Below, one piece after another: positions 41,997 to 63,317 of a stretch of DNA of 64,000 nt. Positions within the stretch are counted from its first letter, which is position 1; each line of letters starts with the position of its first letter. Source of the stretch: Prorocentrum cordatum (lineage: Eukaryota > Sar > Dinophyceae > Prorocentrales > Prorocentraceae); assembly GCA_963575745.1 (NCBI GenBank), contig CAUYUJ010009469.1, positions 424,008 to 488,007 on the forward strand, in the 5' to 3' direction. The position numbers and the translations under genes are program-made. A model generated the notes under the pieces. It had not been told where the DNA came from. It did no database searches and was given only the letters and a program-made list of their open reading frames with translations.

Positions 41997-42374
41997 GAGG
42001 ATAATTAGCAGGGCCCTCCAAATCCAGACCTCCTCGGGTCATGGCAAAACCATGGCGAATGTTGTGCCTGTCTTTTCGGCCTCTGGAGGCCCTGCCTGGC
42101 CTCAAGGCCGTCAAACAACGGCCAGGGACGAACCACCTGTCCCGGGGAGTCCCACCAGTCCTGCGGGCAAGGCTTGGCTGCCGATATCATTCTCTCCTCT
42201 TCCATGAGCCTTCTCCCTTTCGGTGAGGGGTATCCTTCCCCCCCCCTCCCCTCCCTGAGTTTTTTTTTTGGGCGGGCCGCGATCGGTCAGAGCGCCGGGG
42301 GTGGCTCCAAGAGGGCCTCCGATGCTCCAATAATCCAGAAGCCGCATTAAAGTGATCATTTGTTTTTTGGCCCC
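41997..42374. other. no gene recognised
   Basis: No open frame or repeat I would defend in this stretch. Confidence 0.4.
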
Positions 42375-42460
42375 CCCTCTGTCACAGAGGGGGTCTAAGA
42401 TGCCCCCCCTCTGTCACAGAGGGGGTCTAAGATGCCCCCCCCTCTGTCACGGAGGACCTC
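42375..42460. repeat. hairpin array CCCCTCTGT-C-ACAGAGGGG, three units
   Basis: Three units of about 32 bp, each a perfect or near-perfect palindrome CCCCCTCTGTCACAGAGGGG followed by GTCTAAGATG. The same palindrome forms a diverged array at 54165-54425 and occurs singly near 57750. The array lies about 220 bp from the first TGCT hairpin. Confidence 0.85.
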
Positions 42461-42765
42461 GTTCTGGGTGCTCTTCTGCCACGGGAGCACCCGATACGAT
42501 TGGAGACGATAAAATGTGATGGCGGGATGGGGGATTGGAGGGGGAGGGAGAAGAAAACGATGAAGGAGAGGAGGCAACGACAGCACCGATGAAAGCGCCG
42601 TTTTCTTTCTCCGCTCGGGCAGCGGTCGCCGAGCGCGACGGCGCGCGCGAGTCGCCGCCGCTCACGATGCATTGGCAAGGCCTTCGCTGCTGCGGAGGGT
42701 CGACGTTCGGCCGATGAGGCCTCCCTCCGCTGCTGCGGAGGGGCGGCTCCTGTGCGATGGTTCAG

Positions 42766-45364
42766 CTAGGTTCTTCCCAGGGATTGGTCTCGGGGGGGTG
42801 TTCGACCCGCCTCCCAGTGCCCCTGGCCGCTACTCCACCCACTGTGGCTGCTCCACCAGTCACTGGGGCGTTGGTCGCTGCCGAATGCAACTTGCATGTC
42901 GCGCCAGGCGGAGTCGACCCTGCGGTCCTGCAGCGAGGAAGCCTCGCCGCTCGGCTGTTGCCACTCGCGCTCCTCGCCCTTCCTGGTGCGCCACCACTCA
43001 TCCCTGCGCCACTCCCCGTCTGTTGGTTGCTGCCATGGCGTCTGTGGCCTCCGCTGCTGCGGGGGCTCTGGCGGCTCGTGGCCGAGGGCAGCGATCGCGT
43101 CCGAGATGTAGCTGGCGGCGCCGCGCTGCCCTCGCTGCTCCAGCGGCGCAGGCCCTGGAGATGGGCACTGCGGGGTCGGCTGCCACCTTGGGGGTGATAA
43201 GTAACTATTTCTATAATTACCCCCTCCCTGTCAACTCCCGCCCCTTCCCGACACTCATTTCCTTTTGTCATCCCTCGTCCTGCTCAGCCTATTCCTCATT
43301 CCCTCTCCTCCCTCCTGCCCTCCCCGTGCCCCACCCTTCCTCTCCCTCCCTCCCCCTTCCAACCCCCCGCCGCGACCTTCCATCGCCAGCCGCGGGCCAG
43401 TCGCGGCCGTCGTCCGCGTTTTCGCCCGCCCATCTTGGTGGGCGCCACGCCTGTTGGGCGCGCTCGTCTTGCTCGTCCCTCTCGCGGTGCTGCTCTGGTG
43501 CCTGGCGCTCGGGCCCGTGCTGCTCGGGCGCCGCTGCTGCGGCGCCCTGGAGCGCAGCTGCTTGCTGTTTCTGGGCGCGCCTGTCCTTCTTCTCTTTGGC
43601 TCTCTCCTGCTTCCCCCCCTGCGAACGCACGCTGGCCATGCGCATTTGGAACAGGAGAGGGTAGTGGGCGCCGCCGTGCCAGCGCCCCTCCACCTCCACG
43701 GTCTCCGGCGGGAACGTCTTCTGCAACGCGCGGAAGAGGGTCACCTCGCGATTACTAGAGAAGCGGTGGTCCCCTCTAGCCTCAGCCTCGGCGCGCCTCA
43801 GTTTCTCACGCTCCTTCTCTTGGATCTTGCGTTGGCATTCCTCTGACTGGGTCAGTAAATCCTGGAGGTGCTCGCGGGCGTCTTTTTTCGGGTAGTAGCG
43901 ATCGTAAGGCATCCCAGGGCCTCCGTTCTGGCTGTGGTGCCAGTACGTCGGCTCCGATGATGGGCTGGTGGAGGCCCCCGCTGCTGCGGGGGCCTCTGCC
44001 TTGCTTCTGTTACGGTGCCCGATCTCACCGATCACCGACTTGCGTGCGAAGAGCAACCCCGTCTCGTCTCTGTCGTGCACGGCGCCCAGCGGCCAGCACA
44101 GGGTGTACTCGCCAGGCCTGTTGAGAACGAAGATGCCGCAGCTGTCCAAGCACGGAGTGCCGTCCAATCCGCGCCAGAAGTACGCTGCTGCCGTCTCCAA
44201 TCGCATGCCTAGACCCCGGAGACTCGGCAGCGTCTGTGTGAGCGCCATGTTGGAATCCCCACAGAGGATGTCAACGTTGTTGTCCTGCAAGATGGTCGCC
44301 AGCCTCCGCCACCACGTCTTGTGAGCCTCGTTAAAGCCTTTGGATTTTTTCGCCGTGTCGCGGTGGAGGTGCACCGCGCGCGCCCGCACTTTCGAGCCGA
44401 AGTGGGCGTCGGTTTGATCGAAGTAGACCTCAACCACCATGATCCCCGAGAACGCTTCCATCTTGTGCCCATTTGCAGTTTTGTAGTGGCCGTCGACGCT
44501 CCATTCCCAGTGGAGCAGCCGCATTGCGCAACGCAGATTTGCGCGCGCAGCGATGCACAAGGACTTGTCCTCACGCCCGCGCAGGGTCAAGTATTCGTAC
44601 TCTGGTCGATTCTGGAGGTGTTGGCAATCGCCAACACTCGCAGCACGACTTCCTCTTGCTGTCGCCATCGCTGCTGCGGGGGCGACAAAAGGCCCACCGC
44701 TGCTGCTGCTTTGGCCCTCCGCTGCTGACGCCCCCGCTGCTGCGGGGGCGTCCGCCTGCAGCGGCGGTGGTTTCCCTGGCCGCTGTAGGATTGCCTCCAT
44801 CTGCTCCTCACATTCCGCAAAGCACGCCACGAGAGCAGGGTAATGCCGCAGCTGCAACTCAAGTCTCCGCCGCTGGTCCGCGTGGTTGGTCTCGCTCGGC
44901 ATGGGGCCCCAGTTCCCGAACAGGACGGAAAGGTTGCCCACGTTGTCGTTCCGCTGCCTGTTCACGTCAGCCGCTCTTCTTTCGCAGCAGAACTCGCGCG
45001 GGACGGTGTCGCGAAGAACGCAGTTGCGCCGCTCGACGTCGTCGGGCGGCGCGCAGCCCCCAAATTCCTGAGGCTCTTCGTCATCGCTCGGATCCACCAC
45101 CGAGTCGCCTGGGCGGGTGCGTATTGTAGAAACTTCTGATCGCGCCGCCGCTGCTGAGCTTGAAACGCCAGGCGGCGCAGCCCCCGCTGCTGCGGGGGCG
45201 CCCTCTGGCACAAGGGCCCAAGGGCCCTTCCGGGGTTCTGCCTGACCACCCACAGGTCGCCAAACCTTCCCAGATTTCGCTGTAAACACTGCCGACAGTC
45301 GGCCCCGAGGCCCCGCTGCTGCGAGGCCCAATGGGCTGCTGCTGCTGCTGCTGGCCGCGGCCAT
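42766..45364 (-). CDS. EEP (endonuclease/exonuclease/phosphatase)-like protein, two exons
   Basis: Exon 1 is 45364-43377 and exon 2 is 43186-42766. The intron (43187-43376, GT-AG, AAG|GTCGCG donor, CCAAG|G acceptor) restores one frame of about 802 residues. Exon 2 is Trp/Gln/Arg-rich (REWQQPSGEASSLQDR). The middle of the protein contains DILCGDSNMA (D near residue 370), like the GD(F/S)N motif of EEP nucleases, with YFDQTDAHFGS and DSCGIFVLNRPG around it. The family assignment is moderate: the usual C-terminal SDH motif is not clear. The chosen ATG begins MAAASSSSS. The frame is open upstream through a GA/CT repeat, so a further 5' exon is possible. Several TGCT hairpins lie inside and encode APAAAGA-like inserts. 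It follows the OTU/DDE gene on the same strand, so both could belong to one element or transcript. No reverse transcriptase is seen, which argues against a LINE. Confidence 0.6.
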
Positions 45365-45479
45365 CACTCCCTGCCCCCGCGTTGCAGGGGGGGCGGCCGT
45401 CAGAGCCGGGCTCCTGGGGCCGAAACGGCGGTGGAAGGAGGGGGACGGGGCGAAGAGGAGGAAGACGGGGCGGATAGGG

Positions 45480-45563
45480 AAGGAACGGGCGGGCAGAGAG
45501 AGAGGGAGAGAGAGAGGGAGGGACAGGGAGATAGTGACAGAGGGATAGAGAGAGAGAGAGAGA

Positions 45564-45620
<57 letters not shown>

Positions 45621-45660
45621 GGACGACGACAACGAGAGAGAGAGAGAGAGAGAGGGATAG
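45480..45660 (-). repeat. (GA)n tract, pyrimidine-rich on the coding strand
   Basis: GAGAGA with GGGAGG ends on the plus strand, hence CT-rich on the gene strand, 120-300 bp upstream of the EEP start. A similar tract (57620-57665) lies 200 bp upstream of the 57422 start. It could act as a polypyrimidine tract for cis- or trans-splicing, or may only be a microsatellite. Confidence 0.8.
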
Positions 45661-45932
45661 AGAGAGGAATGATATAATGACCAGGAGAGATCAGGGAGAA
45701 GGAGGGGGGAGAGCAGGAGGAGGGGCGGAGTGATCGACACCCGCGTGGTTTTCTCCCCCTGCCTGCTCTCCCCCTCCTCTCACCTCCTCCCTCCTCCCTG
45801 TTTCTTCTGCACAGGGCCTGCGCTACGTCCGCGCGCGCACGCGGCGCCTCAGTCGCAGCCAGGTGGAAGAGCAGTGGCTGCTGCCCGAACTCACACCCCG
45901 CGCCTCGCCGCTGCTGCGGCGGGCCGCGCCTC

Positions 45933-48900
45933 TCAGAGGCCCCCAGCTGCAGGGAGCGCAAGCGCCAGGGAGCCAGACAGACGGCGTCGCGTCTCACTGT
46001 GCATAAACATGCTGAAAGCTCTCGGGTTGCCTCCCAAGTACTCGTCTATGACGTTCTGCAACCATGTGGCAAACGTCTCCGGCCACTTTCCACCGAAGTC
46101 CTCCATGCCAGCGGCGTCCCATTCCCGCCGAAACCACTCAAAATCTGACCGCTGAGCTGCAGAAAGCCCAGAACCCAAAATCGCAAGGCGATTCAGCGCG
46201 TCGCACCTCGACGTTCGACCCGCCGCGCCTCCGCAGCTGCGAAGGCCCGCGCCCAGCTCGGATAACCCGACATGCTTCATCCTGTGTTTGATATCTATGG
46301 CTGCCTCTGCGTCTAAGAGTTTGGCTTGCTGTGTCCTCAGCAGCTTGCGCGCTTTCTTTACGTCGCCCCCCAGGCGGGTTAGCTCTTCTCTGCGCCGCGC
46401 CTCGACATCCCGCTGTCGTTTCTCGTTTCTGAGCGTCGCCTCGCGGGCGTCCTCGTATGCTGCGAGGGCCCGCTGAACCCCGGGATCTTCCTTCGACACT
46501 TCACGCACTCGCCTCCGTTCTTTCCGTAATTGCGTCCCCATGAACGTGGCCCCCGCGATGTCGCCCCAGCTGCGCAACTCCTCAGCGATCGACGAATACG
46601 TTCTCATCAATTCAGACGTCTGCTCCGCAGTTTCCATACGAGACGTCGACAGGCCAGGCGGTGCCTCCAGCGCGCTCTCCCCCGCCGCTGCTGCGGTGAG
46701 ACTTTGATTGGCCCATTCGTAGTCAAACTCGCCAGCGGCGCTCCACCCGTCGTCGTCCTCGCCCCCATCATCTTCATCTCCTTCGAGGGCGTCGACGGAA
46801 TTGCCACCCTCAGTGCCCCCGCTGCTGCGGAGACCCTCGGCTGCGTCTTCCGCCCCCTCCATGCCATGCCAAATCTTGTCGCCCTCGTCCAGAGCCGCGT
46901 CGTCTCCAAGGTTTGCGAACACGTCGTCGCAGTGGCCGCGTCGAGGGCGCGGGAGGACCAATCGCATGATGTCTTTGTAAGTCCATCTCAAGCGCCCCGC
47001 CTGCACCTCTTCTTCGACCTCCGCTACTGCGGCGGCGACCTTCTCACGCATCCTCAAATTCCTCCAGAAATTGCCTGCCTCCCTGCATATGCGCGCGTCC
47101 AAGTCCGCATCCCACAGATTTGCCTTGAAACCAGTTTCCCAGTACCCCTCTGCCGCAGCCAAGTGAAGACCCATTTGGGACATCACTTCCACCATCAAGT
47201 CAATGCATTCTAACTTGTCCAGCTGTGGGACGCACTGGCCCAGCCTCATGGCTCTCAGCAGCGCGGCTCCTTCTCTCTTCATGTACTCGCGCTTGGCGCG
47301 TTGATTCAGATGTGTGTCCACAGTTTGGAGGATTGGGGTTACGCCGCCCCCGCGCGGGATGAACGCGCACCCTCGAGACCAACATAGCTTACTCACAAGC
47401 GGGGACAAGTGAGGGCCATGATCATCCGCCATCATAATTCTCCACTCCCGCTGCTGCGGAGGCTCTGGCAGATGAGGGAGGTGGCGGTCCAGGTACGCGA
47501 GCACGCACGGTGTCCGGTAAGACCCCTTGGTGCTGGTGGTCGCCGACACCCATCTGCCGAACCCTCGGCGCCGAAGGTGTTCGAGCAGGCGCGGCCTCAA
47601 CTTCTCTCCTCCCCCCTCCGCCTTGAACATGCACTCCATCGGTGGGGGGCCTTCTCTCCGCAGTCGATCCTTGTCGCTCATTGTCATGAAATTGGCCGCC
47701 CACCGCTCCCGCACCGCGCCGTGGCACTCCACCAGTGGCACTTCGACCCCCGCTACTGCGAGGGTCCTCACGCCAGCTGATCCTGTTTCATTGTGGTGGA
47801 AAGGCGACTGGTCGAAGTTCTCCATCTCGGGATCCTGCTCGTTGAGTAGCACGCACGCGGCGCGTGCCCTAAACACGTTCAGCCAGCCTCGCTCGAGGCG
47901 CTCTTCCAAGACGGGCAGCGGGCACTTGTACTTCCTGTTCGGGCACCGCATGCTGAGGCCGTATTCCTTGCGCCAGGAGGCCCACCAGCGCGACCTCAAC
48001 TCCACGGCGGCGGGTCGCTGCCCGATCCGCAGCTGCTGCGTGACGTACTCGCCCATGAGCTCCAACGCTTTGGTCTGGAGCATGCTTTGCGTGAACCTTG
48101 CTATCTTCGCTGGCTCTCTTTGGGTACTTCGCATTCCACTTTTGATCATTTTCCAATCTACACTGTGCCGAATGGAACTCCACCATTCAAACAGAGCTCG
48201 CCGCAGCCAAGGGCATTTTCGAGCTGGCCCCTGCCCCTGTTGTGGTATCCTTTTCCGCCCTTTCCACTTCAGGAGGCGCCCCTGCCCGCGCTGCGTCTCG
48301 TGCCCCCGCGGACGCCGAACAGCCTCCGCTACTGCGGAGGCGTATTTCGACGACAGAAAAGCCTTGTGCCAGCGCCGCACAACGTGCGTGCGCTTCCTGA
48401 GGGAGAGACGGGACATGGAACCCCAGTCCCACGCATCCATGAATGAACGCGCCCCTCCATACGGAAAGCGGTCTCCAGGCGTCCAGCCTAAAGAGCGCAT
48501 GTGCTCGTCGAAAGCACCCGCTATCTCCATCCTCGAGCACAGGAGCGACGGGACCACCACGCGCTTCTTGTTCTGGGCGGGGGCTTTGCGCTCGCAGCCG
48601 CGGTTCCTGTACCTCAAGAGCTGCTCCTCCCGCTCTGCGGGCATCAACTCCCGAGCTACGTCCAGGGCGCACGCAGCGTCTTTCAGTCCTGTCCACCATT
48701 GGATGGCTTGCACGAGCTCCTGACAGACTGCCTCGGCGTCGACTTCCACCACTGCCAAGTCCTCCGGTGGCGCCGCCGCTGCTGCGGCGGCAACGCCCTG
48801 TGCTCTCGGGGGGGCGGCGTGGCCAGGCTGCGGGACAAGTTCTTCGTCGTCTAAGGCGCTCTGCAGGCGACGAAGCTCCTGGATGTCATCCTGCGTGACT

Positions 48901-50573
48901 TCTTGTGTCAGGACCATCACGTCGAGGAACCACGCCTGACGCACCCTTTGCACAATGTAGTCCGCGATGTCCTGGCAGGCGGGCATGGAGGAGGGGCAAG
49001 GAGACTCGGTGGGGGGGGCGCGAGGGGAGAGGGGGGCGCGATGGGAGAGGCATGAAGGCAAAATGGGGAGAGAAGGAGGGGGGGAGCATGTGGGGGCAGC
49101 AGAGATGGAAGCGAAGGATCAGGGTGGTCGGAGAGAGCAACTGTCCTGGCGGAGCTCCCTGCGAGACTCTCGCGTGGAAACCTCCTGGGTCATCCGCAAC
49201 ATGCAATCCAAACCGCAGTCCCCGTCTGCGACTGTGGACACGACGAGCACACCGAGAGCCGAATAGAAACCGTCCACCGTCCAAGCATCTCCCGTGATGT
49301 CCACAAAGTCGGTAGAGACGCCTGCGATAAAATGATTGCATAGAATCAAAGGATACTCCTCCGACACGGGGGCCCAGTCCGGTGGCCCCGATTCTCGGGG
49401 GACGGCGCAACGCGCGATCGCGTCCGCCGCAGGCTCGCGGGTTAACTCCTCCAGTTTCCACGGCGGCAAGACAGCTGTGCAACCGTCGACTCTGTTCCGT
49501 CCTCCCCACACGTAGACGCGCGCCTTCCGCAGAAGTGCAAAGATTACGAAAGCAGAATACCCTATCCACTCTCGGCCTCCCCCCGGCCTTCCGCGAACAC
49601 TGCGCGACAACTTCATCAATTTCGCGAAGCACCTCTGGCCTTGTTCTGAAAGTGCCCCTGCCGGCGCGGGCGGGGCAACCGCAGCGCCTGCGTTCGCGGC
49701 TGTCTTTTCAAAGGCGGCCACTGCGGCAATCTCCGCCCCTGGAAGCACGGGTTCCGCTATGTCGCGAACAGCAAGCGGGGCGGGTTGGGGGAAAGCGACA
49801 GGGGCAACCCCCTTTGCTGAGAGAGCTGCTGTTGCCGCGGAGTCCTTCAGGGCAGCCTCCACTGCGGAAGCGGCCTCGGCGATAGCGTCGGCGCCATGCG
49901 CGCCAGCAGGACCTACGCACGCCTCCGCTGTTGCGGGGCCTGCAGAAGGGCACGCGCACGGTGCCGCCGCCACTTCAGGAGGGGCCACGCACGCTTCCGC
50001 TGACGCACCCGCTGCTGCGGGGCCGTCAGAAGAGCCCACGTGCGGCTCCGCTGCCACTTCAGCAGGGGCCACGCACGCCTCCGCTGACGGCCCCGCTGCT
50101 GCGGGGCCTTCAGCAGGGCCCACCCGCGGCTCCGCTGCCGCTTCAGCAGGGACCTCGCACGCCTCGGCCGGCGCCTCCGCTGCTGCGGGGGCTCCAGCTC
50201 CTGCGGGCCACCCGCCCGCGCAATGCGCTAAATGCCAAGGCGCTTGCAAGTCTGACCATTTATTGCAGTCCACAGAACCGTCCGCCAGACGATGGTCGCT
50301 GGGACACGGCCACTGCGAGCAGAAATGAATCTTCTTACATATGCGTCTGCCAGATTCATAATGGCAAGCCGCGCCGCTGCTGCGGCGCATAACGTACCCG
50401 AATCCGAATATTGTCCCCTTTAGTTTCCGCGGGTTCATGAGCACTCTGTCGGGGTCTTTCTTTTTGTCTTCTTGGTACCAAAACTCCACAAATTCGTTGG
50501 CCTCGCGGTCGTGCCCGACCCGCAGAGGCGCGTTTGCAGGGCGAGCGTCTCCTGGGTCTGATGCCGAAGCCAT
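45933..50573 (-). CDS. OTU-like protease plus DDE transposase-like protein, two exons
   Basis: Exon 1 is 50573-49146 and exon 2 is 48971-45933, giving about 1,488 residues. Order: a Cys/His cluster (CHYESGRRICKK, HFCSQWPC; probable zinc site); Ala-rich repeats of about 28 residues; an OTU-like segment with ADGDCGLDCM (C near 453) and an upstream CNHFIAG (H near 414); then a DDE domain with ENFDQSPFHHNE (D near 863), MADDHGPHLSP (D near 993) and LQTVDTHLNQ (D near 1028), a DD34D-like spacing as in pogo/DDE_1 transposases; an acidic linker; and a charged coiled-coil-like tail. The intron 48972-49145 is best read as GA-AG: CAG|GACAGT...TGCCAG|GACATC, with the 8 bp direct repeat CCAGGACA at both borders. 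After the junction DIADYIVQRVRQAWFLDVMV looks like the rest of the OTU fold. The C-terminus may continue, as a GTGAGA donor lies near 45990. The His before the Cys may mean a permuted OTU fold. It could be a transposon polyprotein or a domesticated gene. Confidence 0.6.
49910..50225 (-). repeat. 84 bp coding repeats, each with one TGCT hairpin
   Basis: Four units of about 84 bp encode Ala-rich 28-residue repeats (GPAAAGxSAEACVAPAEVAA-like). Each unit carries one hairpin at nearly the same place (49921, 50008, 50088, 50173). The hairpins have been amplified together with the coding repeat. Confidence 0.75.
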
Positions 50574-50639
50574 GCGCGCGCACACGCGGCCGCCCTCTTG
50601 TCTCGAGCCCAGCGCCGCAGGGCAAGCAAACGGCCGCAC

Positions 50640-51332
50640 CCCCCCACAAGGAGGATGTACAAGGGGGCGGGAGGAACGAGGAACAAGGGAGATATGCGGG
50701 GCCCAGCGGACACGCGCCTGAAAAAAAACACGACCGTCGGCATGCTTCGCGAGGGTTGCTGCTGTGAGATGGGCTGGTGAGGAGGGGCCCGAACGACTCG
50801 CACCAGGACGAGCGGCCCGAACGACGCGCAGAAAACTTAGAAGCATGCACGCACGAACGAACGGCCCGAACGACTCCGAGAACACCCCCCCAGAAAACAA
50901 GGCCAGAATGTGGGAAGTCGTCGACATCGTGGTCGAGGGAAGGCGAACGCGGCACGGGAGATGATGATGGTCTCCTCTTCCACCGTGAACCAACAGCCCC
51001 CCCAAAAAAAAGCGGGCAGCTCGGGCGTTTGTACAAGACGCCAAAAGTGCAACATTCCTGCAGGCCGCCTCTGCAGGAATTGAGGCGCAGCCCCTCCCGC
51101 AGCCGCACTGCGGGTGCGCCAGCGGGCGCGGGGGAGCGGCGGCGGCGCCAACGCGCAGCTGGTAGCTGTCCCCTCCTCCCCCACCATCATAGCGATGATG
51201 AGAATGATGAGCATCCTACGATGATGAGGCCCTGTGTCCTGTCCCAGAGTCTCGGGCCCCGCCCTGGGCCGCGGGCCACGCCCCCTCCCCCCATCGACTC
51301 TCAACTGCGTCCGTGTTATATATATACACATA

Positions 51333-51368
<36 letters not shown>

Positions 51369-51480
51369 CATATACGTCGACACACCATACATACACAATA
51401 TATACATATATGCATCATGTAATCGGTCAGCGGAGGCCCGACGCCGCCCAGCGCCGCCCAGCTGCCAGCAGCCAAGACGA
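50640..51480. other. spacer between duplicated blocks, no gene
   Basis: It contains CCCGAACGAC/GCCCGAACGA short repeats (50790-50880), an A run at 51004, GA/CA-rich stretches and an AT island. No coding signal is seen. Confidence 0.5.
51307..51420. repeat. (AT)n/(ATAC)n tract
   Basis: TATATATA core with ATACACAT borders. Confidence 0.9.
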
Positions 51481-51497
51481 CCGCACGGAGCGAGAGG

Positions 51498-52032
51498 CAG
51501 AGCGTGCCTCGAGAAAATATTTTCTGTTTCTCAGGGTTTTCTCCGGTTGGCGACGCGCCGCCACCTTCTTCGCTTTCGATGCGCCCTTCACGGTTCCGAG
51601 GAGATCCGCCATGGGATCCCGACCTTTTTCTCCCGCTGCTGCGGAAGCTCCTGCTGCAACCCCCGCTGCTGCGGGGGCATTTTTCACAGGAGTCGCCGCT
51701 TCATCCACGTTGTCTCCTTCTCCGGCGCGAAGCTTCCCAAGCACTTGCTCTAACATTGTCGTTTCGTTCAAGGCGCCCTTCACGGCACTGAGACCACCGA
51801 CCACCTTGAGCATGCACAGGCGGTGCTTTCCGACGGGCACGAAGGCTTCTAGGCTTTCCTCGCCGCCAAAGGAAACATAGCGCTCCTCCCATTCCAGAGC
51901 AAATCCCGCTGCTCCCTCGTGACTTCGGCACAGCCCGCCCGTCGCGCAGAGCACCCCCATGCTCGTGCCATCTTGGCGCGCTGCTTTCCCGACAACGACA
52001 TCCCGCTATGTTTCCTCTGCCTTGCGTCTCAT
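51498..52032 (-). pseudogene. decayed copy of the 53.9 kb acidic-protein gene
   Basis: Aligned with 53917-53408, this copy has the same start (ATG at 52032) and the same two internal hairpins. Codon 9 is TAG (52006-52008) where the intact copy has TGG (Trp). About 26 bp are inserted near 51530-51560 in a stretch that is continuous in the intact copy and change the frame, and the C-terminal half is missing. A frame can restart at the next Met (MGVLCATGG), so a truncated product is possible but unlikely to be functional. Confidence 0.8.
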
Positions 52033-52188
52033 GCCGCCGCGCGCAAGCCCTCGCTGCTGCGATGGCGCCCGCGTTCTAGGTGTCAGCTCCCCTCGCTGGT
52101 GATCCGCTTGAAAACGGCAATGGAAAGCGGACTCCTCGTCTCGAACAAATCCTCCTACTCCTCATCGGACTCCAAAACCTAACCACTT

Positions 52189-52593
52189 CTTGCGGTCCAC
52201 GGAACCGTCCGCCAGGCGGTGGTCGCTGGGACACGGCCACTGCGAGCAGAAATGAATATTCTTACATATGCGTCTGCCAGATTCACAATGGCAAGCCGCG
52301 CCGCTGCTGCGGCGCATAACGAAATTACCCGAATCCGAATATTGGCCTCTTTAGTTTCCGTGGATTCATGAGCACTCTGTCGGGGTCTTTCGTTTTGTCT
52401 TCTTGGTATAAAAACTCCAAATTCGTTGACCTCGCGGTCGTGCCCGACCCGCAGAGGCGCGTTTGCAGGGCGAGCGTCGCCTGGGTCTGGGGGCGGAGCG
52501 GCTGCGGCGGCCATGGTGCCGAAGCCATGCGCGCGCGCGCGCGGCCGCCCTCTTGTCTCGAGCCCAGCGCCGCAGGGCAAGCAAACGGCCGCA
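52189..52593 (-). pseudogene. decayed copy of the OTU/DDE gene 5' end
   Basis: It matches the first exon start of the OTU/DDE gene (PGDARPANAPLRVGHDRE and the zinc-cluster region). It has lost 2 bp after AACGAATTT and gained 4 bp beside the hairpin at 52298, so the frame breaks twice. It ends before the Ala-rich repeats. An extra GCC-rich insertion follows the ATG. Confidence 0.8.
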
Positions 52594-52960
52594 TCCTCGC
52601 AATGATCCTCCTGTCGGTGCTGCTGCGGGTGCTGCTGCTGCTGCTGTTGCTCCTCCTTCCTCCTCCTCCTCCTCCTCCCCCTCCCCCTCCTACTGGTCCC
52701 AACCCCTCCGCCCCGTCCTCGCCAGATTCCGCGAGTTCCTTTTGTCCTCTAGCGCGCGAGCGCTGGAGAGCCGCAGGCTCGCGATCCCCCGCGCGCGCCC
52801 TAACCCCTGTCCAGTCGACAGGAACCCGCAGGCATCCACCTCAGCGGTCAGCGCGCCGCTGCTGCGGTGCAAACACCGAGTCTGTCTGCATAAAACAAGC
52901 CGTTGTAGCGGTCAGCGCGCCGCTGCTGCGGCGCGCGCCAGCGAGCGGATAACGAGGACA
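52594..52960. other. spacer, no gene
   Basis: CTG/CTC-rich to 52690, then two TGCT hairpins (52849, 52912). These two share a GTCAGCGCGCCGCTGCTGCG context, so they are a local duplication. Confidence 0.5.
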
Positions 52961-53917
52961 TCACTTCTCTGTTTCCTGCCTGATGGCTTTCTGGACCACG
53001 TCCTCCAAGAACGCTAGAAGAACCTGCTTCAGCTGCGCACGGGTGGACTGTTTCAAGGGCGTCGTCACTTCCGTCAACGCCACGCCTGTGGACCATTTCT
53101 CCTCGTTCAGATCCTGAATCCTGGAGGCCCATCTTCGGCCTGCCATTGGCCCTCCTTTGACCTCCAGTGTCCACATCCCAGAGGGGCACCACCTGGTGGT
53201 CCACGGGCGCTTCTCGTCCAAAGCGTCGTCCTCGTCGTCGTCGTTGGGTTCGGGAACGCTTTTGCCCTGGCTCTCCTCGTACAGGTAATGCAGAAGCCAA
53301 GGCAGGTCCTGACTCTGAACGAGTAGTTGCCCATACTTGTTCTCATACACACTAACCTCTTTCGTGTCGGCCTCATCTGGCTTAGGAGACATCGGCATGG
53401 TTACTCTGCAGAGCGTGCCTCGAGAAAATCCTTTCTGTTTCTCAGGGGTTTTCTTCGCTTTCGATGCGACCTTGACGGTGCCGAGGAGATCCGCCATGGG
53501 ATCCCGACCTTTTTCTCCCGCTGCTGCGGGAGACCCTGCTGCAACCCCCGCTGCTGCGGGGGCCTCTTTCACAGGAGTCGCCGCTTCATCCACGTTGTAT
53601 CCTTCTCCGGCGCGAAGCTTCCCAACCAATTGCTCTAACATGTTTGTTTCGTTCAAGGCGCCCTTCACGGCACTGTGACCACCGACCACCTTGAGCATCC
53701 ACAGGCGGTGCTTTCCGACGGGCACGAAGGCTTCTAGGCTTTCCTCGCCGCCCAAGAAAACACAGCGCTCCTCGCATTCCAGAGCAAATCCCGCTGCTCC
53801 CTCGCGACTTCGGCACAGCCCGCCCGTCGCGCAGAGCACCCCCATGCTCGTGCCATCTTGGCGCGCTGCTTTCCCGACAACGACCTCCCGCCATGTTTCC
53901 TCTGCCTTGCGTTTCAT
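52961..53917 (-). CDS. unknown acidic/Lys-rich protein, intact copy
   Basis: A 318-residue frame from ATG 53917 (MKRKAEETWREVVVGKAA). The N-terminal half is Gly/Ala/Glu-rich and contains two hairpin-encoded inserts (APAAAGVAAGSPAAAGEKG). The C-terminal half is ordinary globular-looking sequence: VSVYENKYGQLLVQSQDLPW, YLYEES, an acidic patch (NDDDEDD) and MWTLEVKGGPMAGRRW. I do not recognise the family. The early KRK could help nuclear targeting, but that is a guess. A paralogue (51498-52032) is broken, which suggests this copy is the one under constraint. A TGCT hairpin sits just upstream of the ATG in both copies. An upstream exon cannot be excluded, because the frame is open 5' of the ATG. 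Confidence 0.6.
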   Translation of the reverse strand: MKRKAEETWREVVVGKAARQDGTSMGVLCATGGLCRSREGAAGFALECEERCVFLGGEESLEAFVPVGKHRLWMLKVVGGHSAVKGALNETNMLEQLVGKLRAGEGYNVDEAATPVKEAPAAAGVAAGSPAAAGEKGRDPMADLLGTVKVASKAKKTPEKQKGFSRGTLCRVTMPMSPKPDEADTKEVSVYENKYGQLLVQSQDLPWLLHYLYEESQGKSVPEPNDDDEDDALDEKRPWTTRWCPSGMWTLEVKGGPMAGRRWASRIQDLNEEKWSTGVALTEVTTPLKQSTRAQLKQVLLAFLEDVVQKAIRQETEK

Positions 53918-54050
53918 GCCGCCGCGCGCAAGCCCTCGCTGCTGCGAAGGCGCCCGCGTCCTAGGTGTCTGCTCCCCTCACAGGTGATCCGCCTGAAAAC
54001 GGCTATGGAAAGCGGACTCCTCGTCTCGAACAGATCCTCCTACTCCTCAT

Positions 54051-54164
54051 CAGCATCGTGCTCCCTCCACGAGCTTCTTTCCATCTCATCCAACCCCTCC
54101 CCCTCCTTCTCTCCGAACGAGCACAGCTGCCTTCCCTGTCCCTTGACCGCTCCTCTGCCCCTTG
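54051..54164. other. short spacer
   Basis: CT-rich, no feature seen. Confidence 0.4.
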
Positions 54165-54425
54165 AGGGGGGGCCTTGTGTGCTCTGACCGACCCTCTGTC
54201 CCGCAGGGGGGGGCGTCCTGATCGAACGACCACCCCTGTTTCACAGAGGGGGGCGCGCGGAAAAGCACGACCCCCCCCCTCTGTCGCAGAGGGGGGGGGG
54301 GTGCGTGGAAAAACGCGCCCCCCCTCTGTCACAGAGGGGGCGGGGCGGAAAAGCGCGACCCCCCTCTGTCACAGAGGGGTTCGGCCTTGCGTGCTTCGAC
54401 CGCCCCTCTGTCCCACAGAGCGTCC
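54165..54425. repeat. hairpin array CCCCTCTGT-C-ACAGAGGGG, about seven units
   Basis: Seven units of about 40-46 bp, each with a CCCCTCTGT(C)ACAGAGGGG palindrome of varying quality, then a spacer such as CGCGCGGAAAAGC. Loop and spacer vary more than the arms. Related to the array at 42375. Confidence 0.85.
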
Positions 54426-54978
54426 CGCGAACAGGACGGCAGGACGATGAGCAGGACGATGAGCACGGAGAGAGGAAAACAGGACACGGGAGGGAGGCAG
54501 GAACGGACGAGGGGGGGCGGAGACGGAGGCGAGGCGCGAGGGGAGGGCAGGACGAACACAGAGGGAGAGGAGCAGGACGAGACCTGGCAGGGGATATGCA
54601 CCAGGAGAGAGATCTCATGGAGGAAGAGGAGGGGAGGGGACGAGAGGCACTCACATTTAAGCGCATTTGCAGGCCCTCGCACTTGCTCCATTTCTCAGCG
54701 ACCGCCGCGCCGCCATGAGAACTGACGTACCACCGCCACTACTGCGGCGGATGCGTGACCTCTCCCATCCCTGTCTTGTGCTGTTTCTGCTGCCCCCCTC
54801 CCCCCTCCCTCTTCGACCTCCTCTCCCCGCCCTTTTCCTCCTCCCCTCCAGCTGACGGCTGCGGGCTGCGACGGGTGGATCATCGGCCGCTGTCATCTGC
54901 CGCCCCGTTTCGCGCACCCTCCGCTGCTGCGGCGGGATCGCACGAAGTGGGCCCCCTGGCCAGGGATTGTCATCTTAC
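54426..54978. other. GA/GGA-rich stretch, no certain exon
   Basis: Purine-rich to about 54640. Then TGCT hairpins at 54733 and 54917, both within what would be the intron or 3' flank of the broken gene (donor CG|GTAAGA at 54978). Confidence 0.5.
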
Positions 54979-57422
54979 CGCTCTTGGGGGCTTTCCGTCC
55001 CTCCTCGGCGTCCTCCTTCCGTTTCTTCTCCTGCTCTTTCTGCTCCGTTTGCCATGCCTGCTTCTCCTTTTGGGTGTCGGTGGCCCTCTTCTCCTTTGTG
55101 ATCTGCAGCATCAGCCGATCTCCGCGCACCAACGGCACCGTGTTGCGCATGCACGGGACAAGCACGCTGCAGACGCGGAGGGGGGCGGCTGGTTAGCACT
55201 TTGTCATTGTCTGGAACTCGTGTGGTCGAAGTGCAACGTTGAACTTCCAGTGCTCCTGTCCCTGCACTAGCTGGGCTCGGGCAAGTTCTTCTGGTGTCAT
55301 CCTCTCAACTCCCCAAAAGAAGTGCAAGGACTCGGTACCTCCGAACTTAAACTGGTACGGATTCTCTGCCTGGTCGGCCTCGCCCTGTGCAGGCGCCGCT
55401 GCTGCGGGGGCCGCCCCGTCGAGCTGCGGACCTACGGGCGCCTCGCCCTGCGCAGCCTCCGCTGCTGCGGAGGCCGCTTCCAGCGGCGCGGGCTTGAGCT
55501 CCAGCTCTGGTAATTTGAATTCAGGTTGTGCCCAATATTTTCCATTTGCTCGACAGGAGTCGGACGTTTCTCACCGACTAGGACCTCCACTGCCCGCGGG
55601 TTGCTCGAGACTTTCGGGAAAATCTTCGCGGTGGGGCAGCAAGGGAAGAGCATCAGTTTCCCCTCGGCGATGTCCTCAGTAGCCACCACATGGACACTCT
55701 TGGCTTGAACGTCATATTGCATCTGGACGGGTTGGGCGCATGTGTCCGCGTGGCGATGGAAGCCAGTCATGACTTCCGCGACGCTTGCTTGGTGCCACCT
55801 GTCTGTGTCGAGATTGGCAGACGGAGCCGAAGCGTGCCACGATTTCACTGGGACCACCATCAGGCTGTTCACGGGCTTTGACACTTCAGACACCTGCCTG
55901 TTCAGAGGCTTGTCTTCTTCGTTGAACTCTATCAATACTGGCTGCGGGCGAGGGCCCTCGGGGGTTCTCGGGGGCCAGCGGGGTTCTCGGGGGCCGCGGG
56001 CAACTTGTCGGTCCACGGCGCAGGAGGGAGCGGGAACTCTTTCTGTGCGTTCTTGTCCATGTTCTGCCAGGCCTCGCGTACTTCAGCATAGTGCGGACGC
56101 ACTGCCTCGCACGCGGCCTCCACAACTGCCTCCAGACGAGGTTTGCCAGCCTTCACCCTTACGTACGCCTGGTAGAAGGTCTCCGTCGCAGTCAGAACCG
56201 CCCCCGCGGTCAAAATCGCGCTCTTCTCCTCCCCGTGGGCCTCCGCTGCTGCGGGGGGCAATATGCGACGGACATACCCCAACAAAGAATTGAGCTCCTT
56301 TACCCGACTGCTGCCCTCGCTGTGTCCCCAAGCCGTTTCCGGCGCGGGGCATTGTCCGCACCTCGGCTCTTGCGAGTACGCCCTCATGACAAGGGCTACC
56401 TTCACATGGGGACAATATATGGGGAATTGGTTGAGAACGCCCCATGTGGCTGGTGCCAGGGAGCGTATTTTGTGATCCACCCAACGTCTATCATAATCCA
56501 GAATTTGCGGCATGAGCTGCCCTGATGCGGCCCCTACGTTGATGACGAAAGTGAACATGTCCTCGAACCATTTGGCCTTGGCGTGCTCGGGATGTCGTTG
56601 CGCGCAAGCCTTGAGAAAAGTGTCGTACGAGATATTCACGGGCTGTGCTGTCTCAGATCCCCACGATGCTTTCTTGCCCGCCGCTGCTGCGGTGGCGACG
56701 AAATCAGCGACGGACGTCGGGACCTCGATTTCGTGAGAGGTCACACCTTTTCCCTGTGGGTCGTTCAGGGCCGCGGAAATGATCGCGGGGCCTTGCGCGA
56801 AGACGGCATCGAAGTGAATTTCCCACGAGAGCACCTCGCAAAGCAAACCGTTATCGAGCACGTCCATGAGTTCTGTGAACTTCGGTGCGCGACGCATTTT
56901 TGGGATATCCCAGGAACCACCTGTACCTGTCTGGAACTCCTCCAAACCACATCCTTTGTGGTCTTCGGGAATGACCCACACTGCGCCGTGCTTGAGGCTC
57001 AGCAGACCAAGGGTTAGCGCGCAGTGGCTCAGCGCCCCGTAGTTGAACGTTGACAAGCTTGTGTGCGCCGAGCGTAGAGCCTCCACGGACTCCGTTTTCT
57101 GCAAGTTGTGGTCCGCGTGCGCCGTGCACGGCCTGCCATGGAGGCGCTCGTAATCGGCCTTCTTCCCCGCAGGGAGTTCCTGAACAACCACTGCTTCGTG
57201 CTGCGCCTCGTTCAAGAGGAACCTGTCTTTCAGAATCCCACACAGGAGATTAACCACTCTGGCAGCGGAGGGGCACGTTCCACCTCTGTTCTGCGGGTGG
57301 ACGCAGATATCCTCCAAGGAGATCTTGGCCTTCAACCGCTGCCCCTCGGAGTCCTTCAAGGCATAGCGGCTGCGCAACGTGGCGGCATCATTCAGGGGGC
57401 CTGACTTGATGTCCTCGGACAT
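54979..57422 (-). pseudogene. unknown large protein gene with two frame breaks
   Basis: Four coding segments follow in order on the minus strand: 57422-55932 (MSEDIKSGPLNDAATLRSRY onward, about 496 codons); 56016-55432 in the next frame (VLIEFNEEDKPLNRQ); about 55570-55200 in a third frame (YWAQPEFKLPELELKP, QFKFGGTESLHFFWGVER); and 55166-54979 (VLVPCMRNTVPLVRGDRLML, Lys/Glu-rich end). The last two share a frame and are separated by a TAA that a 33 bp GT-AG segment (55167-55199) would remove. The first break lies at a 19 bp tandem repeat (55961-55995), the second near 55535-55565. An in-frame TAG directly precedes the first ATG. After 54979 a canonical GTAAGA donor follows. Family unknown. 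The C-terminal part resembles that of the gene at 59115-61529 (VP...N...GD.L..Q pattern). The breaks could be pseudogenisation, unrecognised introns, -1 frameshifting or sequence errors. Confidence 0.55.
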
Positions 57423-57615
57423 CTATCCAGGCGCCCCCGCTGCTGCGGGGGCAGCTTCCAAAACAGATGCTCCGCGACGGTTGCCCCCGCTGCTGCGGAG
57501 CCCCGCTTGAAGCGCGAGTGCCTGTCGCGCGCGCGGACAGAAGGAGGGGCCTCACGGATCCGCGGCCTGCCCGCACTTGAGCAACAGGAGAAGGAGAGGA
57601 AAGGCAGATAGAGGA

Positions 57616-57668
<53 letters not shown>

Positions 57669-58156
57669 GAACGGCGGGTCGACGCGGCCTTCTCAGTTTT
57701 TCGATGCGCGCACATCCGCCTGAACAGGAGAATCATTGATACATCGGCCCCCCCTCTGTGAGAGAAAGATTTCCCACCCCGAAACCATCTGTGAGGGAAG
57801 GGGGCGCTGTGTGAGTTGCGTGCATGGAAGCGACGATCAGAACAAAGACATACTGGCGGGCGGGGGATTGCAGGAGGGAGCGCAAGGGGAAGCGAAGCAA
57901 AGGAGAGAGAGCAGGACACAGATGACAGCACAGATGTCGTTTTTTTTTCTCACACCGCATGCGATGCCGCACGCGACGCGGGAAACCGCGCTCCCCCGCG
58001 CGCGCGCGAGTGCGCCCCTCCGCCGAGGTCACCCCCCCTCGGCGAAATTCGTGCGACATCCCTCCGCTGCTGCGGAGGGGCGCTCCCCTTGTGCGCTCGG
58101 GATGTCGCGGTCGTCCTGAGGACCGTGCAGTCAACCATCTGGGGGCACTGTCGTGT
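57423..58156. other. intergenic or 5' region, no gene recognised
   Basis: It holds TGCT hairpins at 57428, 57481 and 58061, a GA tract (57620-57665) and a single CCCCCCCTCTGTGAGAG remnant of the second hairpin family at 57750. A minus-strand open frame across 57392-57931 is mostly CT repeat. Confidence 0.5.
57620..57665 (-). repeat. (GA)n tract
   Basis: Uninterrupted GA dinucleotides, CT on the gene strand, about 200-240 bp upstream of the 57422 start. Confidence 0.9.
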
Positions 58157-58630
58157 TCATCCGCCCCGTGATGACATCCGAAGGGGGTCGACGCCTTCTT
58201 GCCAGGAGCTGCCGACTGGCGGCATCTTGGACCCTAGTTTGTACCAGTTGCCCCAATGGTCGCGGTACCAAAGTGCCTTATCGAATGGATCGTCATCTTC
58301 CACGCCTGTCCTCCGAGCAGTCTTCTCATCCCACAACCCACCACGCTCCAAGACAGCAGCCCCCGCTGCTGCGAGGGCTACAGCAGCCCCCGCTGCTGCG
58401 AGGGCTTGTTTCTTGGAGCTCGCCTTGCGCCGAGCTAGCGGCCCCGCGGCCGCCTTCGCCGACGCTGCCGTGGGTCGAGCCGCCGCCCCAGCGCGCTTGC
58501 TCGAATGAGGTCTGTGGTCCGGTTTCCGAGAAGCCCTCTTCTCGCCGACGCGGCATCGCCCCGTCCTTGTGTCGGGTTTCCTATTTCTCGCCGATGCGGC
58601 ATCGCCCGGTCCTTGTGTCGGGCTTCCTAC
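58157..58630 (-). CDS. Ala/Lys/Arg-rich exon of an unknown protein
   Basis: An open frame that a CTTCAG|G acceptor at 58631 could begin. It encodes a basic, Ala-rich segment (ASRKPDHRPHSSKRAGAAAR, ASAKAAAGPLARRKASSKK) like a histone-H1-type tail. Two tandem 27 bp units follow, each with a TGCT hairpin (QALAAAGAAVALAAAGAAV), then a distinct end (DKALWYRDHWGNWYKLGSKM). A 46 bp tandem duplication at the 5' end (58540-58630) is read in two different frames, because 46 is not a multiple of 3. The frame stays open up to 58900, but that part lies in AT-rich sequence with inverted repeats and is probably not coding. Function unknown; nuclear or DNA-associated by composition only. Confidence 0.45.
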   Translation of the reverse strand, partial: VGSPTQGPGDAASARNRKPDTRTGRCRVGEKRASRKPDHRPHSSKRAGAAARPTAASAKAAAGPLARRKASSKKQALAAAGAAVALAAAGAAVLERGGLWDEKTARRTGVEDDDPFDKALWYRDHWGNWYKLGSKMPPVGSSWQEGVDPLRMSSRGG

Positions 58631-58675
58631 CTGAAGGCCCTCGGCCTTACTAATTGTTAGCAGCACATGTAAGTA

Positions 58676-58718
58676 GGTTATAAGTAAGTTGCAACTAGGT
58701 TGCAAGTAAGTTATAACC
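58676..58718. repeat. imperfect palindrome with GTAAGTT repeats
   Basis: GGTTATAAGTAAGTTGCAAC pairs imperfectly with GTTGCAAGTAAGTTATAACC, and GTAAGTT also occurs as a direct repeat. Confidence 0.7.
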
Positions 58719-58777
58719 ATTAGTAATGTTACTAAGTCGGCTAACTCGGGCGGTGCATTTGGAGGTAGAGAGCTTGA

Positions 58778-58804
58778 GTTAGCGAAGTTGCTAACTTCGC
58801 TAAC
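58778..58804. repeat. 12 bp perfect hairpin GTTAGCGAAGTT-GCT-AACTTCGCTAAC
   Basis: Perfect 12 bp arms with a 3 bp loop in the divergent region. Transcribed leftward or rightward it would make a stable stem, and as DNA it could be a protein-binding palindrome. Confidence 0.85.
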
Positions 58805-59114
58805 TTTTACATGCTTACGTGAAAACAGAGCTGCTGCATCGGGTTTTCCTTGGATGTTGCCTCCAGAAACGCATGCATGTGTTTGGATTTTCGGGATCAC
58901 GCATATCGGAAATCATGATCCAGACTTGCGTGCGAACGCATTCAGAATATTGTATCGAGCGTTGCAAGAATGTTGTGCGTTGCAAATGCAACATATCATT
59001 TCGAATTCGCAACCCTCTGTTGCACATGTTTTTGAATGTCACTAGAGTTTGGGCTCCAGCCGTTTGGGCGAGGATTGCTGCTGGCGATTGTGGCGTCCTC
59101 CTGCACGCGGCGTG

Positions 59115-61529: not shown

Positions 61530-63243
61530 GGCTCGCGTGTTGGCAGCATCGGTTACACATACCATGTGTCGTGGGGGGTGTTTATGAAATGTATGAAAGC
61601 ATCGTCGGTATCGTTCCTCTGCAATCGTTGCATCATTGCGTCAACACGCATCGGACTCGTCTGCAATTGTCCATTGCATCGGCCCGCAGGCGTTTGGCTG
61701 TGTCCAAGCGAGTGCACGCTGCATCTGCGCGCGCACTGCAGCTGCAGATGGCAGCGAGCGTGCAGCTCCGCACGGTCATCGAGGGGGGCGGCCTTAAGGA
61801 TCGCGAGCCATGGGTCCCGAGGGCGGTGATGCATACGGCAGGGGGGCTCTTCGTGGAGCTGTCGAGAGCGGATAGGCAGCTGCAAAAATTTATATCTGTG
61901 CCCAACCCCACCAAGAGCCAATCGCCTCTGGCGACAAATTCGTTTTTCGATCAGATCTTGAAGATGCGCAACGCCGCTTGCACCGAGGCCATTTGGGACC
62001 ACTTGAAGCAGGCCGACCCATTGCTTCAGCAAGATTGCGACAGGGCCAGCGTCATTAAGAACAATAGGAGTTCTCTGGATATGTCGCAATCGTGGACGCT
62101 TCGCGCATTCCCACCAGGGGAGGAGGAAGGAGAGGAGGAGGATGATACATTGGATGATGAGGTGGAGTGGCGGGGGAGGGGGGCGAGGATGAGGGGCTGA
62201 AACAGAGGGGGATGGTGGAGGAGAAATGGGGGGAGGGAAAGGGGGAGGAGGACGGAGCATAAGGATGACAAAAAATGATGAGGAGGAGGAATAGGAGATG
62301 CCTTAATTCGCTTGCGTGAATAGGCCGCTCTTGGACCACTCTTGGATCGATCTCTTGACCCTGAGACTTCTTGGGCAATCTTGGATCGCGTGATATCTTG
62401 GACAAGCTTGGGCAATCTTGGGTCGCGTGATATCCATGCCTGCATGTTGAGGCATCGCGTGATATTGGGACATATCCGTGGACATCTTGAAGTATATATG
62501 AGCCCTTCTTGGGGCCACCGTCCAGGCAAACCACTCCCCCAAGGGGGTGAAGGGCGTAGAAGAGAACGCATTCTAGACATGTGCCCTAACGGGATGGTGG
62601 TCTACCAGAAACTGTCTCGATATTTATGCCCGCAGTCCAGTGCGACCATGGTGATGAGCATTTGCATCACGATGCAGTTGCCTTGAAGCTCCTGTTTGAG
62701 CTGAATGCTACTAAGAAGGTGTGGGTCGAATGTACGCCAACGGGACTTGAGTACATACGGGTTGCATCTATCGCAGCAGCGGTTTCACATCGCTTGCGGT
62801 CAGCACCAGCAGGGGTGGAAGGTGTGAAATGCGACAAACGTCGCAGGACGGTGTTCATGGTGGTCGACGGCAAGCGCCTGCAGGAGCGAGTGGACGATTG
62901 GACTCCCACGTACACCAACAACGCAGCCCAATCCCTTCGTGATCGCTTAGATAACGAGGCACGTGATGAGGCTGAAGCTGATGGGTCCGAGGAGTACTAT
63001 GACCCGCCAGTCGCAGCAGGCGATGGCTCGCCACCAGGCGATGGCCCGCCACCAGGCGATGGCTCGCCACCAGGCGATGGCTCGCCACCAGGCGATGGCT
63101 CGCCACCAGGCGATGGTTCGCCAGGCGATGGTTCGCCGCCAGGTGATGGTTCGCCAGGCGATGGTTCGCCACCAGGTGATGGGCCGCCCTCTGTTTTCAC
63201 TCGCCGATGGGAGATGCGCCAGACGACGCTTGGCTTCCAGTAG
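61526..63243 (+). CDS. unknown protein with acidic linker and GDGSPP repeats, two exons
   Basis: Exon 1 is 61526-62161 and exon 2 is 62641-63243, about 412 residues. The 479 bp intron is GT-AG (GATGAG|GTGGAG...AGTCCAG|TGCGAC), and joining gives EEEDDTLDDE-CDHGDEHLHH in frame. The N-terminal half is helical and basic (ASARRRLAVSKRVHAASA), then acidic. The second exon has a globular part (KVWVECTPTGLEYIRV, RRTVFMVVDGKRLQERVDDW), Pro/Gly/Asp repeats, and ends RQTTLGFQ, which loosely resembles a PCNA-binding tail. The ATG overlaps the stop of the preceding gene as ATGA. A later Met near 61586 is an alternative start. A sequence like the TGCT hairpin in reverse orientation occurs at 62771-62781 (CGCAGCAGCGG), with a poor stem. 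Function unknown. Confidence 0.6.
63020..63185 (+). repeat. 18 bp coding repeat (GGCGATGGCTCGCCACCA)
   Basis: About ten units, some shortened to 15 bp, encode GDGSPP or GDGSP. The changes are in multiples of three, which supports this exon being translated. Confidence 0.85.
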
Positions 63244-63317
63244 CTCCACTCCATCTTCGCCTTCCCACCTCCCCTTCCCTCTCCCTCCAATCTCTATTCT
63301 ATTTTTGCCTCGCGTGC
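63244..63317. other. short convergent intergenic gap
   Basis: Only about 74 bp separate the two stop codons. It is CT-rich on the plus strand. No polyadenylation signal is evident. Confidence 0.6.

What the first reader, a model, noticed from the sequence alone, without database searches (positions are those of the whole stretch)
42681..58406. A dense family of frame-tolerant hairpin elements inside coding sequence
About 43 copies of CCNCCGC-TGCT-GCGGNGG lie within 16 kb, none in the 42 kb to the left. The stem bases differ from copy to copy while pairing is mostly kept, and the loop is nearly constant. Many copies lie within long open frames and add Ala-Ala-Ala, Gln-Gln-Arg or Ser-Ser-Gly without breaking them. 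The core has no stop codon in any of the six frames. This recalls the Rickettsia palindromic elements that insert into genes, but here in a eukaryote-like genome. It could be a selfish element that survives by being harmless to translation, or a conserved RNA structure or recombination signal.
Basis: partly seen in the sequence, partly recalled or inferred. Interest (0 to 1): 0.9.

Follow-up and report, generated by a model that had tools for sequence, protein, structure and literature searches.

The report
Hairpin-studded giant transposon of an alga
The hairpins are a 20-letter motif scattered about 68 times, facing the same way, through a 24,000-letter jumping element present in hundreds of copies in this very large algal-type genome, and one hairpin can be seen to have been newly added inside a gene without breaking its reading frame.

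Summary
In the window element part the loop-bearing core occurs 37 times exactly on + and never on -. The hairpins lie inside one repeat: a ~24.2-kb element with ~31-bp terminal inverted repeats ending in TA, present in hundreds of copies of a 4.13-Gb genome (size and GC fit the dinoflagellate Prorocentrum cordatum; inferred). The window copy runs 42331-58632 and lacks the right ~8 kb. One long frame has a mariner-like DD34D motif read by eye; no Pfam model supports it.

The unit is a sharply bounded 20-mer, GCCNCCGC-TGCT-GCGGNGGC, at about 68 sites per element, in coding (three frames) and non-coding parts. Nearly all sites compared are shared between copies. One (window 49668) is polymorphic: 245 matches to a hairpin allele, about 100 to a short one. 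A rooted-by-midpoint tree nests the hairpin copies within short-allele copies: a gain. It is in frame (+21 bp), keeps polarity, carries the family core, and its right arm inverts the left flank. Two losses were also seen.

Best reading: hairpins spread slowly in cis by fold-back template switching, so stem covariation need not mean selection. A bound RNA or DNA site remains possible.

The parts
42331..58632 (.). Window copy of the ~24.2-kb terminal-inverted-repeat element; left end intact, right ~8 kb missing
   Evidence: Common left end at 42330/42331 in four other copies; in three of the four contigs the match stops at 58632, in C114 at 58432; those copies continue to a second, inverted end
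42331..42361 (+). Left terminal inverted repeat TAATCCAGAAGCCGCATTAAAGTGATCATTT
   Evidence: Left ends of five copies and right ends of four copies read; a 26-mer of it occurs 179+181 times exactly in the genome, control 0
42374..42457 (.). Subterminal array of a second hairpin, CCCCTCTGTCACAGAGGGG
42681..58404 (+). Forty-seven <=1-mismatch hairpin cores (37 exact) of the dispersed 20-mer family GCCNCCGC-TGCT-GCGGNGGC; a few of the 47 are probably background
43289..45997 (-). Open frame P0002 (902 aa); GDSN (window) / GDFN (C146) motif like endonuclease/exonuclease/phosphatase proteins, read by eye only
   Evidence: no supported Pfam match
43526..43547 (+). Site B: hairpin present here and in C13608, disrupted in the four copies of the C146 group
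45933..49061 (-). Open frame P0001 (1042 aa), candidate DD34D transposase by motif spacing; carries hairpins in three frames
   Evidence: no Pfam match
49119..51044 (-). Open frame P0003 (641 aa) containing site A
49652..49676 (+). Site A, short allele (no hairpin) in the window copy; the hairpin allele elsewhere adds 21 bp in frame
54233..54379 (.). Central array of the second hairpin; in the full C146 copy it lies at 12.02-12.23 kb of 24.19 kb
55932..57422 (-). Open frame P0004 (496 aa here, 1033 aa in the C146 copy)
55955..55985 (+). Site C (approximate limits): hairpin present in the seven other copies aligned, absent with a length change of -7 in the window copy

Best explanation
The hairpins are a short palindromic repeat family that appears confined to a giant (24-kb) TA-flanked, mariner-like DNA transposon. 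SHOWN: 20-bp unit, one polarity of the exact core, ~68 sites in a full copy, coding and non-coding, three frames; nearly all compared sites shared between copies; one gain that is in frame, keeps polarity, brings the family core and makes its right arm an inverted copy of the left flank. INFERRED: new hairpins arise when DNA synthesis inside the element stalls at a small imperfect palindrome, copies the core of another hairpin in the same orientation, snaps back at the TGCT loop and copies its own flank before rejoining the template. Same-strand copying keeps polarity and keeps the family inside the element; snap-back makes the stem differ from site to site yet pair; later mutation frays it. 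In genes only in-frame, protein-tolerated events survive (Ala-Ala-Ala preferred). No function is needed, though none is excluded.
For: Confinement: 5322 exact 18-mer matches against 282 for the reversed control; 99 of the first 100 listed are clustered in elements. Unit edges: information falls to background outside 20 bp. Polarity of the exact core 52:0 and 37:0 in two copies. Gain: 22-sequence tree of the 600-bp flank with the site masked; the 9 hairpin sequences form one clade (98/99), nested in a 99.1/100 clade with two short-allele copies; midpoint root among short-allele copies. Those two short-allele copies share flanking variants with the hairpin copies. +7 codons in frame. Relic pairing beyond the 20-mer at pairs 6-12 in the 61 other non-redundant sites (146 paired v 116.5, p about 0.001), none at pairs 13-18 (96 v 95.7): expected if stems began longer and frayed. 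Template switching is described as able to create perfect stems in a single event (PMC8794818, abstract and start of introduction).
Against: Only one gain was found, against two losses (sites B, C). The donor of the core is not identified. The gain needs a core copy plus a snap-back. Excess pairing at pairs 6-12 is modest. Hairpin 20-mers vary less between copies than the rest (40 of 1358 v 1200 of 22293 positions), which could mean selection, although part of this is base composition and ascertainment. The five largest frames hold hairpins in proportion to their length (35 of 68 in about 51%), unlike a purely filtered insertion process. Polarity of site A rests on a midpoint root, not on an outgroup.
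Confidence: 0.5

Rival explanations
1. Functional dispersed sites: an element-encoded or host protein binds the hairpin in the sense transcript (loop AGCA) or in the DNA, as dispersed packaging, export, protection or synapsis signals, and selection keeps loop and pairing.
For: Constant loop with covarying stem; fixed polarity relative to the large frames, which run on the - strand; hairpins spread in proportion to length through large frames and the rest; lower variation inside hairpins.
Against: Arm positions outside the core vary at 24 of 680 (3.5%), close to C and G positions elsewhere (3.1-4.4%); no double change at a pair between C146 and four other copies; pairs formed in C146 but not in another copy (16) are not fewer than the reverse (10) (all). 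Copies with a lost hairpin persist. Spacing is random.
Confidence: 0.28
2. A true mobile mini-element moved by a dedicated enzyme, as for miniature transposable elements.
For: Discrete 20-mer with sharp edges, in-frame gain.
Against: The exact core is never in the opposite orientation in two copies; confined to one transposon as far as listed; no clear target-site duplication at the gain, and the new arm copies the flank.
Confidence: 0.1
3. Site A is a loss, not a gain: the hairpin is ancestral and was deleted in the short-allele copies.
For: The unrooted tree needs one change either way; losses do occur (sites B, C).
Against: Short-allele copies are more diverse (mean distance 0.054 v 0.020, maximum 0.123 v 0.035) and the midpoint root lies among them; by the alignment a loss would take deletions of 14 and 7 bp.
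Confidence: 0.1
4. Codon-biased polyalanine and CTG/CAG slippage in GC-rich genes.
For: 24 of 35 hairpins in the five largest frames read Ala-Ala-Ala.
Against: Six read Arg-Ser-Ser and five Gln-Gln-Arg; 33 of 68 lie outside these five frames; sharp 20-bp palindromic edges; exact core 52:0 in polarity over 24 kb.
Confidence: 0.02

Closest known systems
Rickettsia palindromic elements (RPE)
   Same: Palindromic repeats inserted in frame inside protein-coding genes
   Different: RPEs are given as ~150 bp, in bacterial genes (PMC10969869, passages); this unit is 20 bp, of one polarity, inside one transposon
Template-switch mutations that create hairpins (Monttinen and Loytynoja 2022, PMC8794818, abstract and start of introduction)
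   Same: One event can make a reverse-complement repeat and a perfect stem
   Different: Here the new hairpin also carries a fixed family core, so it is also a copy of an existing hairpin
Coding palindromes of nematomorph mitochondria (PMC6649704, abstract)
   Same: Perfect inverted repeats inside translated genes
   Different: Those are up to 284 bp and mitochondrial, with arms that encode conserved protein regions
GC clusters, double-hairpin elements and repetitive hairpin-forming elements of mitochondria (titles and abstract starts only)
   Same: Short hairpin repeats treated as mobile
   Different: Organellar; here inside a transposon of a nuclear-size genome, partly in coding frames
IS630-Tc1-mariner transposons
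   Same: Terminal inverted repeats flanked by TA; three acidic residues with 34 residues between the last two (by eye; spacing rule recalled)
   Different: 24 kb with many frames of unknown kind; no Pfam match to the candidate transposase

Membership tests
Rickettsia palindromic elements | Palindromic unit inserted in frame in coding sequence | tested here: met
   Gain of 21 bp, 7 codons, at one site
Rickettsia palindromic elements | Unit of ~150 bp, in rickettsial genomes | tested here: not met
   20-bp unit; RPE size from PMC10969869 (passages)
Rickettsia palindromic elements | Scattered in unrelated host genes | tested here: not met
   99 of the first 100 listed places lie in element clusters (capped list)
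Tc1/mariner-type DNA transposon | Terminal inverted repeats | tested here: met
Tc1/mariner-type DNA transposon | TA target site duplication | tested here: inconclusive
   TAAT at the left end in 9 of 9 end pairs, ATTA intact at the right end in 7 of 9; no empty site seen
Tc1/mariner-type DNA transposon | DDE/D transposase domain | tested here: inconclusive
   DD34D spacing by motif; no Pfam match; single-sequence fold uninformative, pLDDT 35
Template-switch product | New arm is a reverse complement of adjacent pre-existing sequence | tested here: met
   Site A right arm GCGCCTGCAGGGG is the inverted left flank CCCCTGCAGGCGC
Template-switch product | No sequence from outside the site needed | tested here: not met
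   The family core is absent from the short allele
Introner | Spliced out of transcripts | not testable with these tools
   No transcripts held; the large frames stay open through the hairpins

The most novel reading that the evidence does not exclude
A minimal cis-replicator: a 20-bp hairpin that multiplies inside a giant transposon purely by polymerase template switching, with its loop and inner stem inherited from a parent hairpin and its outer stem rewritten from each new flank. It would give RNA-like covariation and fixed polarity with no function, no enzyme of its own and no target duplication.
Probability: 0.35. Interest if true: 0.85.

Novelty: new variant of a known kind. Interest (0 to 1): 0.62.

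Why it matters
If right, it shows covarying, loop-conserved hairpins arising in one step without selection on structure, a caution for inferring RNA structure from covariation. It also gives a system with hundreds of similar copies in which gains and losses of coding hairpins can be dated and counted. The carrier, a 24-kb mariner-like element whose frames match no Pfam family, is itself unusual. In my nine paper searches of the open library I saw no title or abstract start that describes it; subscription papers and preprints are not covered.

Tried and rejected
Chance: rejected. Host-wide selfish element: not supported by the listed places (first 100 of 5322). Viral origin: 36 IMG/VR contigs hold the 20-mer pattern, one match each, read as chance; no relative of P0001 in IMG/VR or phage records. 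Regular spacing: not seen, CV 0.85, random mean 0.98. Translational bypass: not needed, since the large frames stay open. Selection among present copies: codon-position and omega tests near neutral (omega 0.72-1.18 in eight frames; the overlapping frame O8 gave 7.04 on 40 changes, unexplained), yet stops are fewer than expected (13 v 37.0 over nine frames chosen as open in C146). Relatives of the transposase with other codons: 2 matches, both one letter from the family sequence. A single-sequence structure model of P0001 was useless, so no fold search was made. One search counted six - strand cores at <=1 mismatch in the C146 copy; one search shows that one coincides with a + site, five do not, and none is exact. 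Rows set aside: a fourth differing site, C146:38647, a <=1-mismatch core without palindromic arms; one such core of C13608 (78189); six cores with too few homologous stretches, outside the element or at duplication edges; two of five fetched stretches (C13608, C9691) that did not match site C; two low-complexity ranges; contigs without a facing pair of ends.
Full report
OBSERVATION. The hairpins are there and far beyond chance: 60 matches on both strands to the 18-mer with up to two mismatches, 0.2 expected. With the loop-bearing core CGCTGCTGCG, which tells the strands apart, the window element part holds 47 + sites at <=1 mismatch; the exact core is 37 on + and 0 on -. Among perfect >=7-bp stems with 4-base loops there, TGCT is the commonest loop (16 of 34; 12 others belong to an AT run); it is not among the ten loops listed for the 22 such stems in the 42 kb to the left.

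WHERE IT SITS. The window is 64 kb at the end of a contig of a 4.13-Gb assembly. Size and GC resemble Prorocentrum cordatum (4.15 Gbp, 59.7% GC, 22,724 scaffolds; PMC10666404, passages); that name is my inference. Genome-wide the exact pattern occurs 2591+2731 times against 128+154 for the reversed pattern, and 99 of the first 100 listed places fall in clusters. Four full or nearly full copies (C114, C146, C217, C225) were read piece by piece. They share sharp ends: left TAATCCAGAAGCCGCATTAAAGTGATCATTT, right its inverted copy. A 26-mer of it occurs 179+181 times, control 0. Of 31 facing pairs that I took from the first 100 listed ends, 19 span 23.5-25.5 kb (median 24.1 kb); short ones include one of 217 bp made of the two ends. 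Flanking sequences differ. TAAT stands at the left end in 9 of 9 pairs read and ATTA at the right in 7 of 9. The window copy has the left end (42331) but stops at 58632.

GENES. Long frames run on the - strand: 701, 1041, 697, 1033 and 628 aa in the C146 copy (the 697-aa one is cut at a piece edge). No Pfam model gives a supported match. By eye the 1041-aa frame has FDQSPFH, MADDHGPH and QTVDTHLN, with 34 residues between the last two acidic residues, the mariner spacing as I recall it; with the TA flanks this suggests a mariner-like transposase. Its window form is open without stops in 39 of 44 copies scored, but those were the best of 8683 candidates. Stops between copies are fewer than expected (13 v 37.0), which supports coding; otherwise the copies look near-neutral.

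THE UNIT. In the C146 copy 68 sites align to a 20-mer, GCCNCCGC-TGCT-GCGGNGGC, with background flanks. Pairing exceeds shuffles at pairs 2-5. In the alanine frame the variable pair falls on a first and a second codon position, so synonymous codon choice cannot make it covary. Of 35 sites in the five largest frames 24 read AAA, 6 RSS and 5 QQR; a few of these <=1-mismatch sites are probably background. Those frames hold about 51% of both sites and length. Spacing is random.

GAINS AND LOSSES. Sites in five copies were compared; right of window 58632 only four closely related copies could be compared. Three hairpin sites differ. Site A (window 49668): 245 matches to the hairpin allele at <=3 mismatches, control 0; 112 to the short allele at <=2, control 6, of which 97 of the 100 listed have <=1 mismatch. 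Sixteen further copies were fetched. With the site masked, a 22-sequence tree (13 short, 9 hairpin, two of these from contig C225) puts the hairpin sequences in one clade (98/99), joined at 99.1/100 with two short-allele copies that already share flanking variants. Short-allele copies are more diverse, and the midpoint root lies among them. So I read a gain. It adds seven codons (VAPPAPAGAL to VAPAGAPAAAGAPAGAL; readable in 19 of 22 sequences). The new right arm inverts the left flank, giving a stem of 19-21 bp. The core is absent from the short allele, so it came from another hairpin (inference). Site B is present in the window and in the most distant copy read, C13608, and disrupted in the C146 group. 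Site C is present in the seven other copies aligned and absent, with a frame change, in the window. In 7 kb of C13608 every other compared hairpin site lies within two mismatches of the core; at one further site 100 of the first 100 listed copies (of 224) have the hairpin. Hairpins are thus mostly old, and gain is rare.

MECHANISM. One polarity, confinement to the element, an inherited core and self-copied arms point to template switching on one strand with snap-back. Relic pairing at pairs 6-12 beyond the unit (146 v 116.5; none at 13-18) fits frayed longer stems. Template switching is described as able to create stems in one event (PMC8794818, abstract). A selected RNA or DNA site is the main rival: hairpin positions vary less than the rest (40 of 1358 v 1200 of 22293), but arm positions outside the core (24 of 680) vary about like C and G elsewhere, and no double change at a pair was seen between C146 and four other copies.

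PRIOR WORK. Papers were seen as listings, passages (PMC10666404, PMC9860276, PMC10969869) or abstracts with outline (PMC6649704, PMC8794818, the latter with the start of its introduction); none in full. In those nine searches I saw no description of this element or hairpin; that is not proof of absence.

Noticed in passing
window 42374-42457 and 54233-54379; C146 copy at about +45..+94, 12018-12230 and 24076-24160 of 24190: A second hairpin, CCCCTCTGT(C/G)ACAGAGGGG, forms arrays at both ends and close to the midpoint of the element, recalling from memory the end and centre sites of phage Mu, or an old fusion of two ~12-kb units.
   Followed up: partly
G000:C3538:56662-56878 (L086): A 217-bp miniature derivative made of the two element ends, with four clear second-type hairpins and one degenerate one.
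   Followed up: partly
window 58633-64000: Unrelated sequence follows the broken right side of the element up to the contig end, with + strand frames 59049-60329 and 60762-61529 without Pfam matches.
   Followed up: no
G000:C146:59945-70044; G000:C225:447230 and 457120: Partial second copies and internal duplications of the element, so copies recombine.
   Followed up: no
C146:45003-46052, frame O8: Frame O8 shows 2 synonymous against 37 non-synonymous changes between copies, as if another frame or constraint acts there.
   Followed up: no
window 63006-63180; 45540-45690; 57610-57665: Minisatellite of GATGGCTCGCCACCAGGC-like units, and (AG)n tracts.
   Followed up: no
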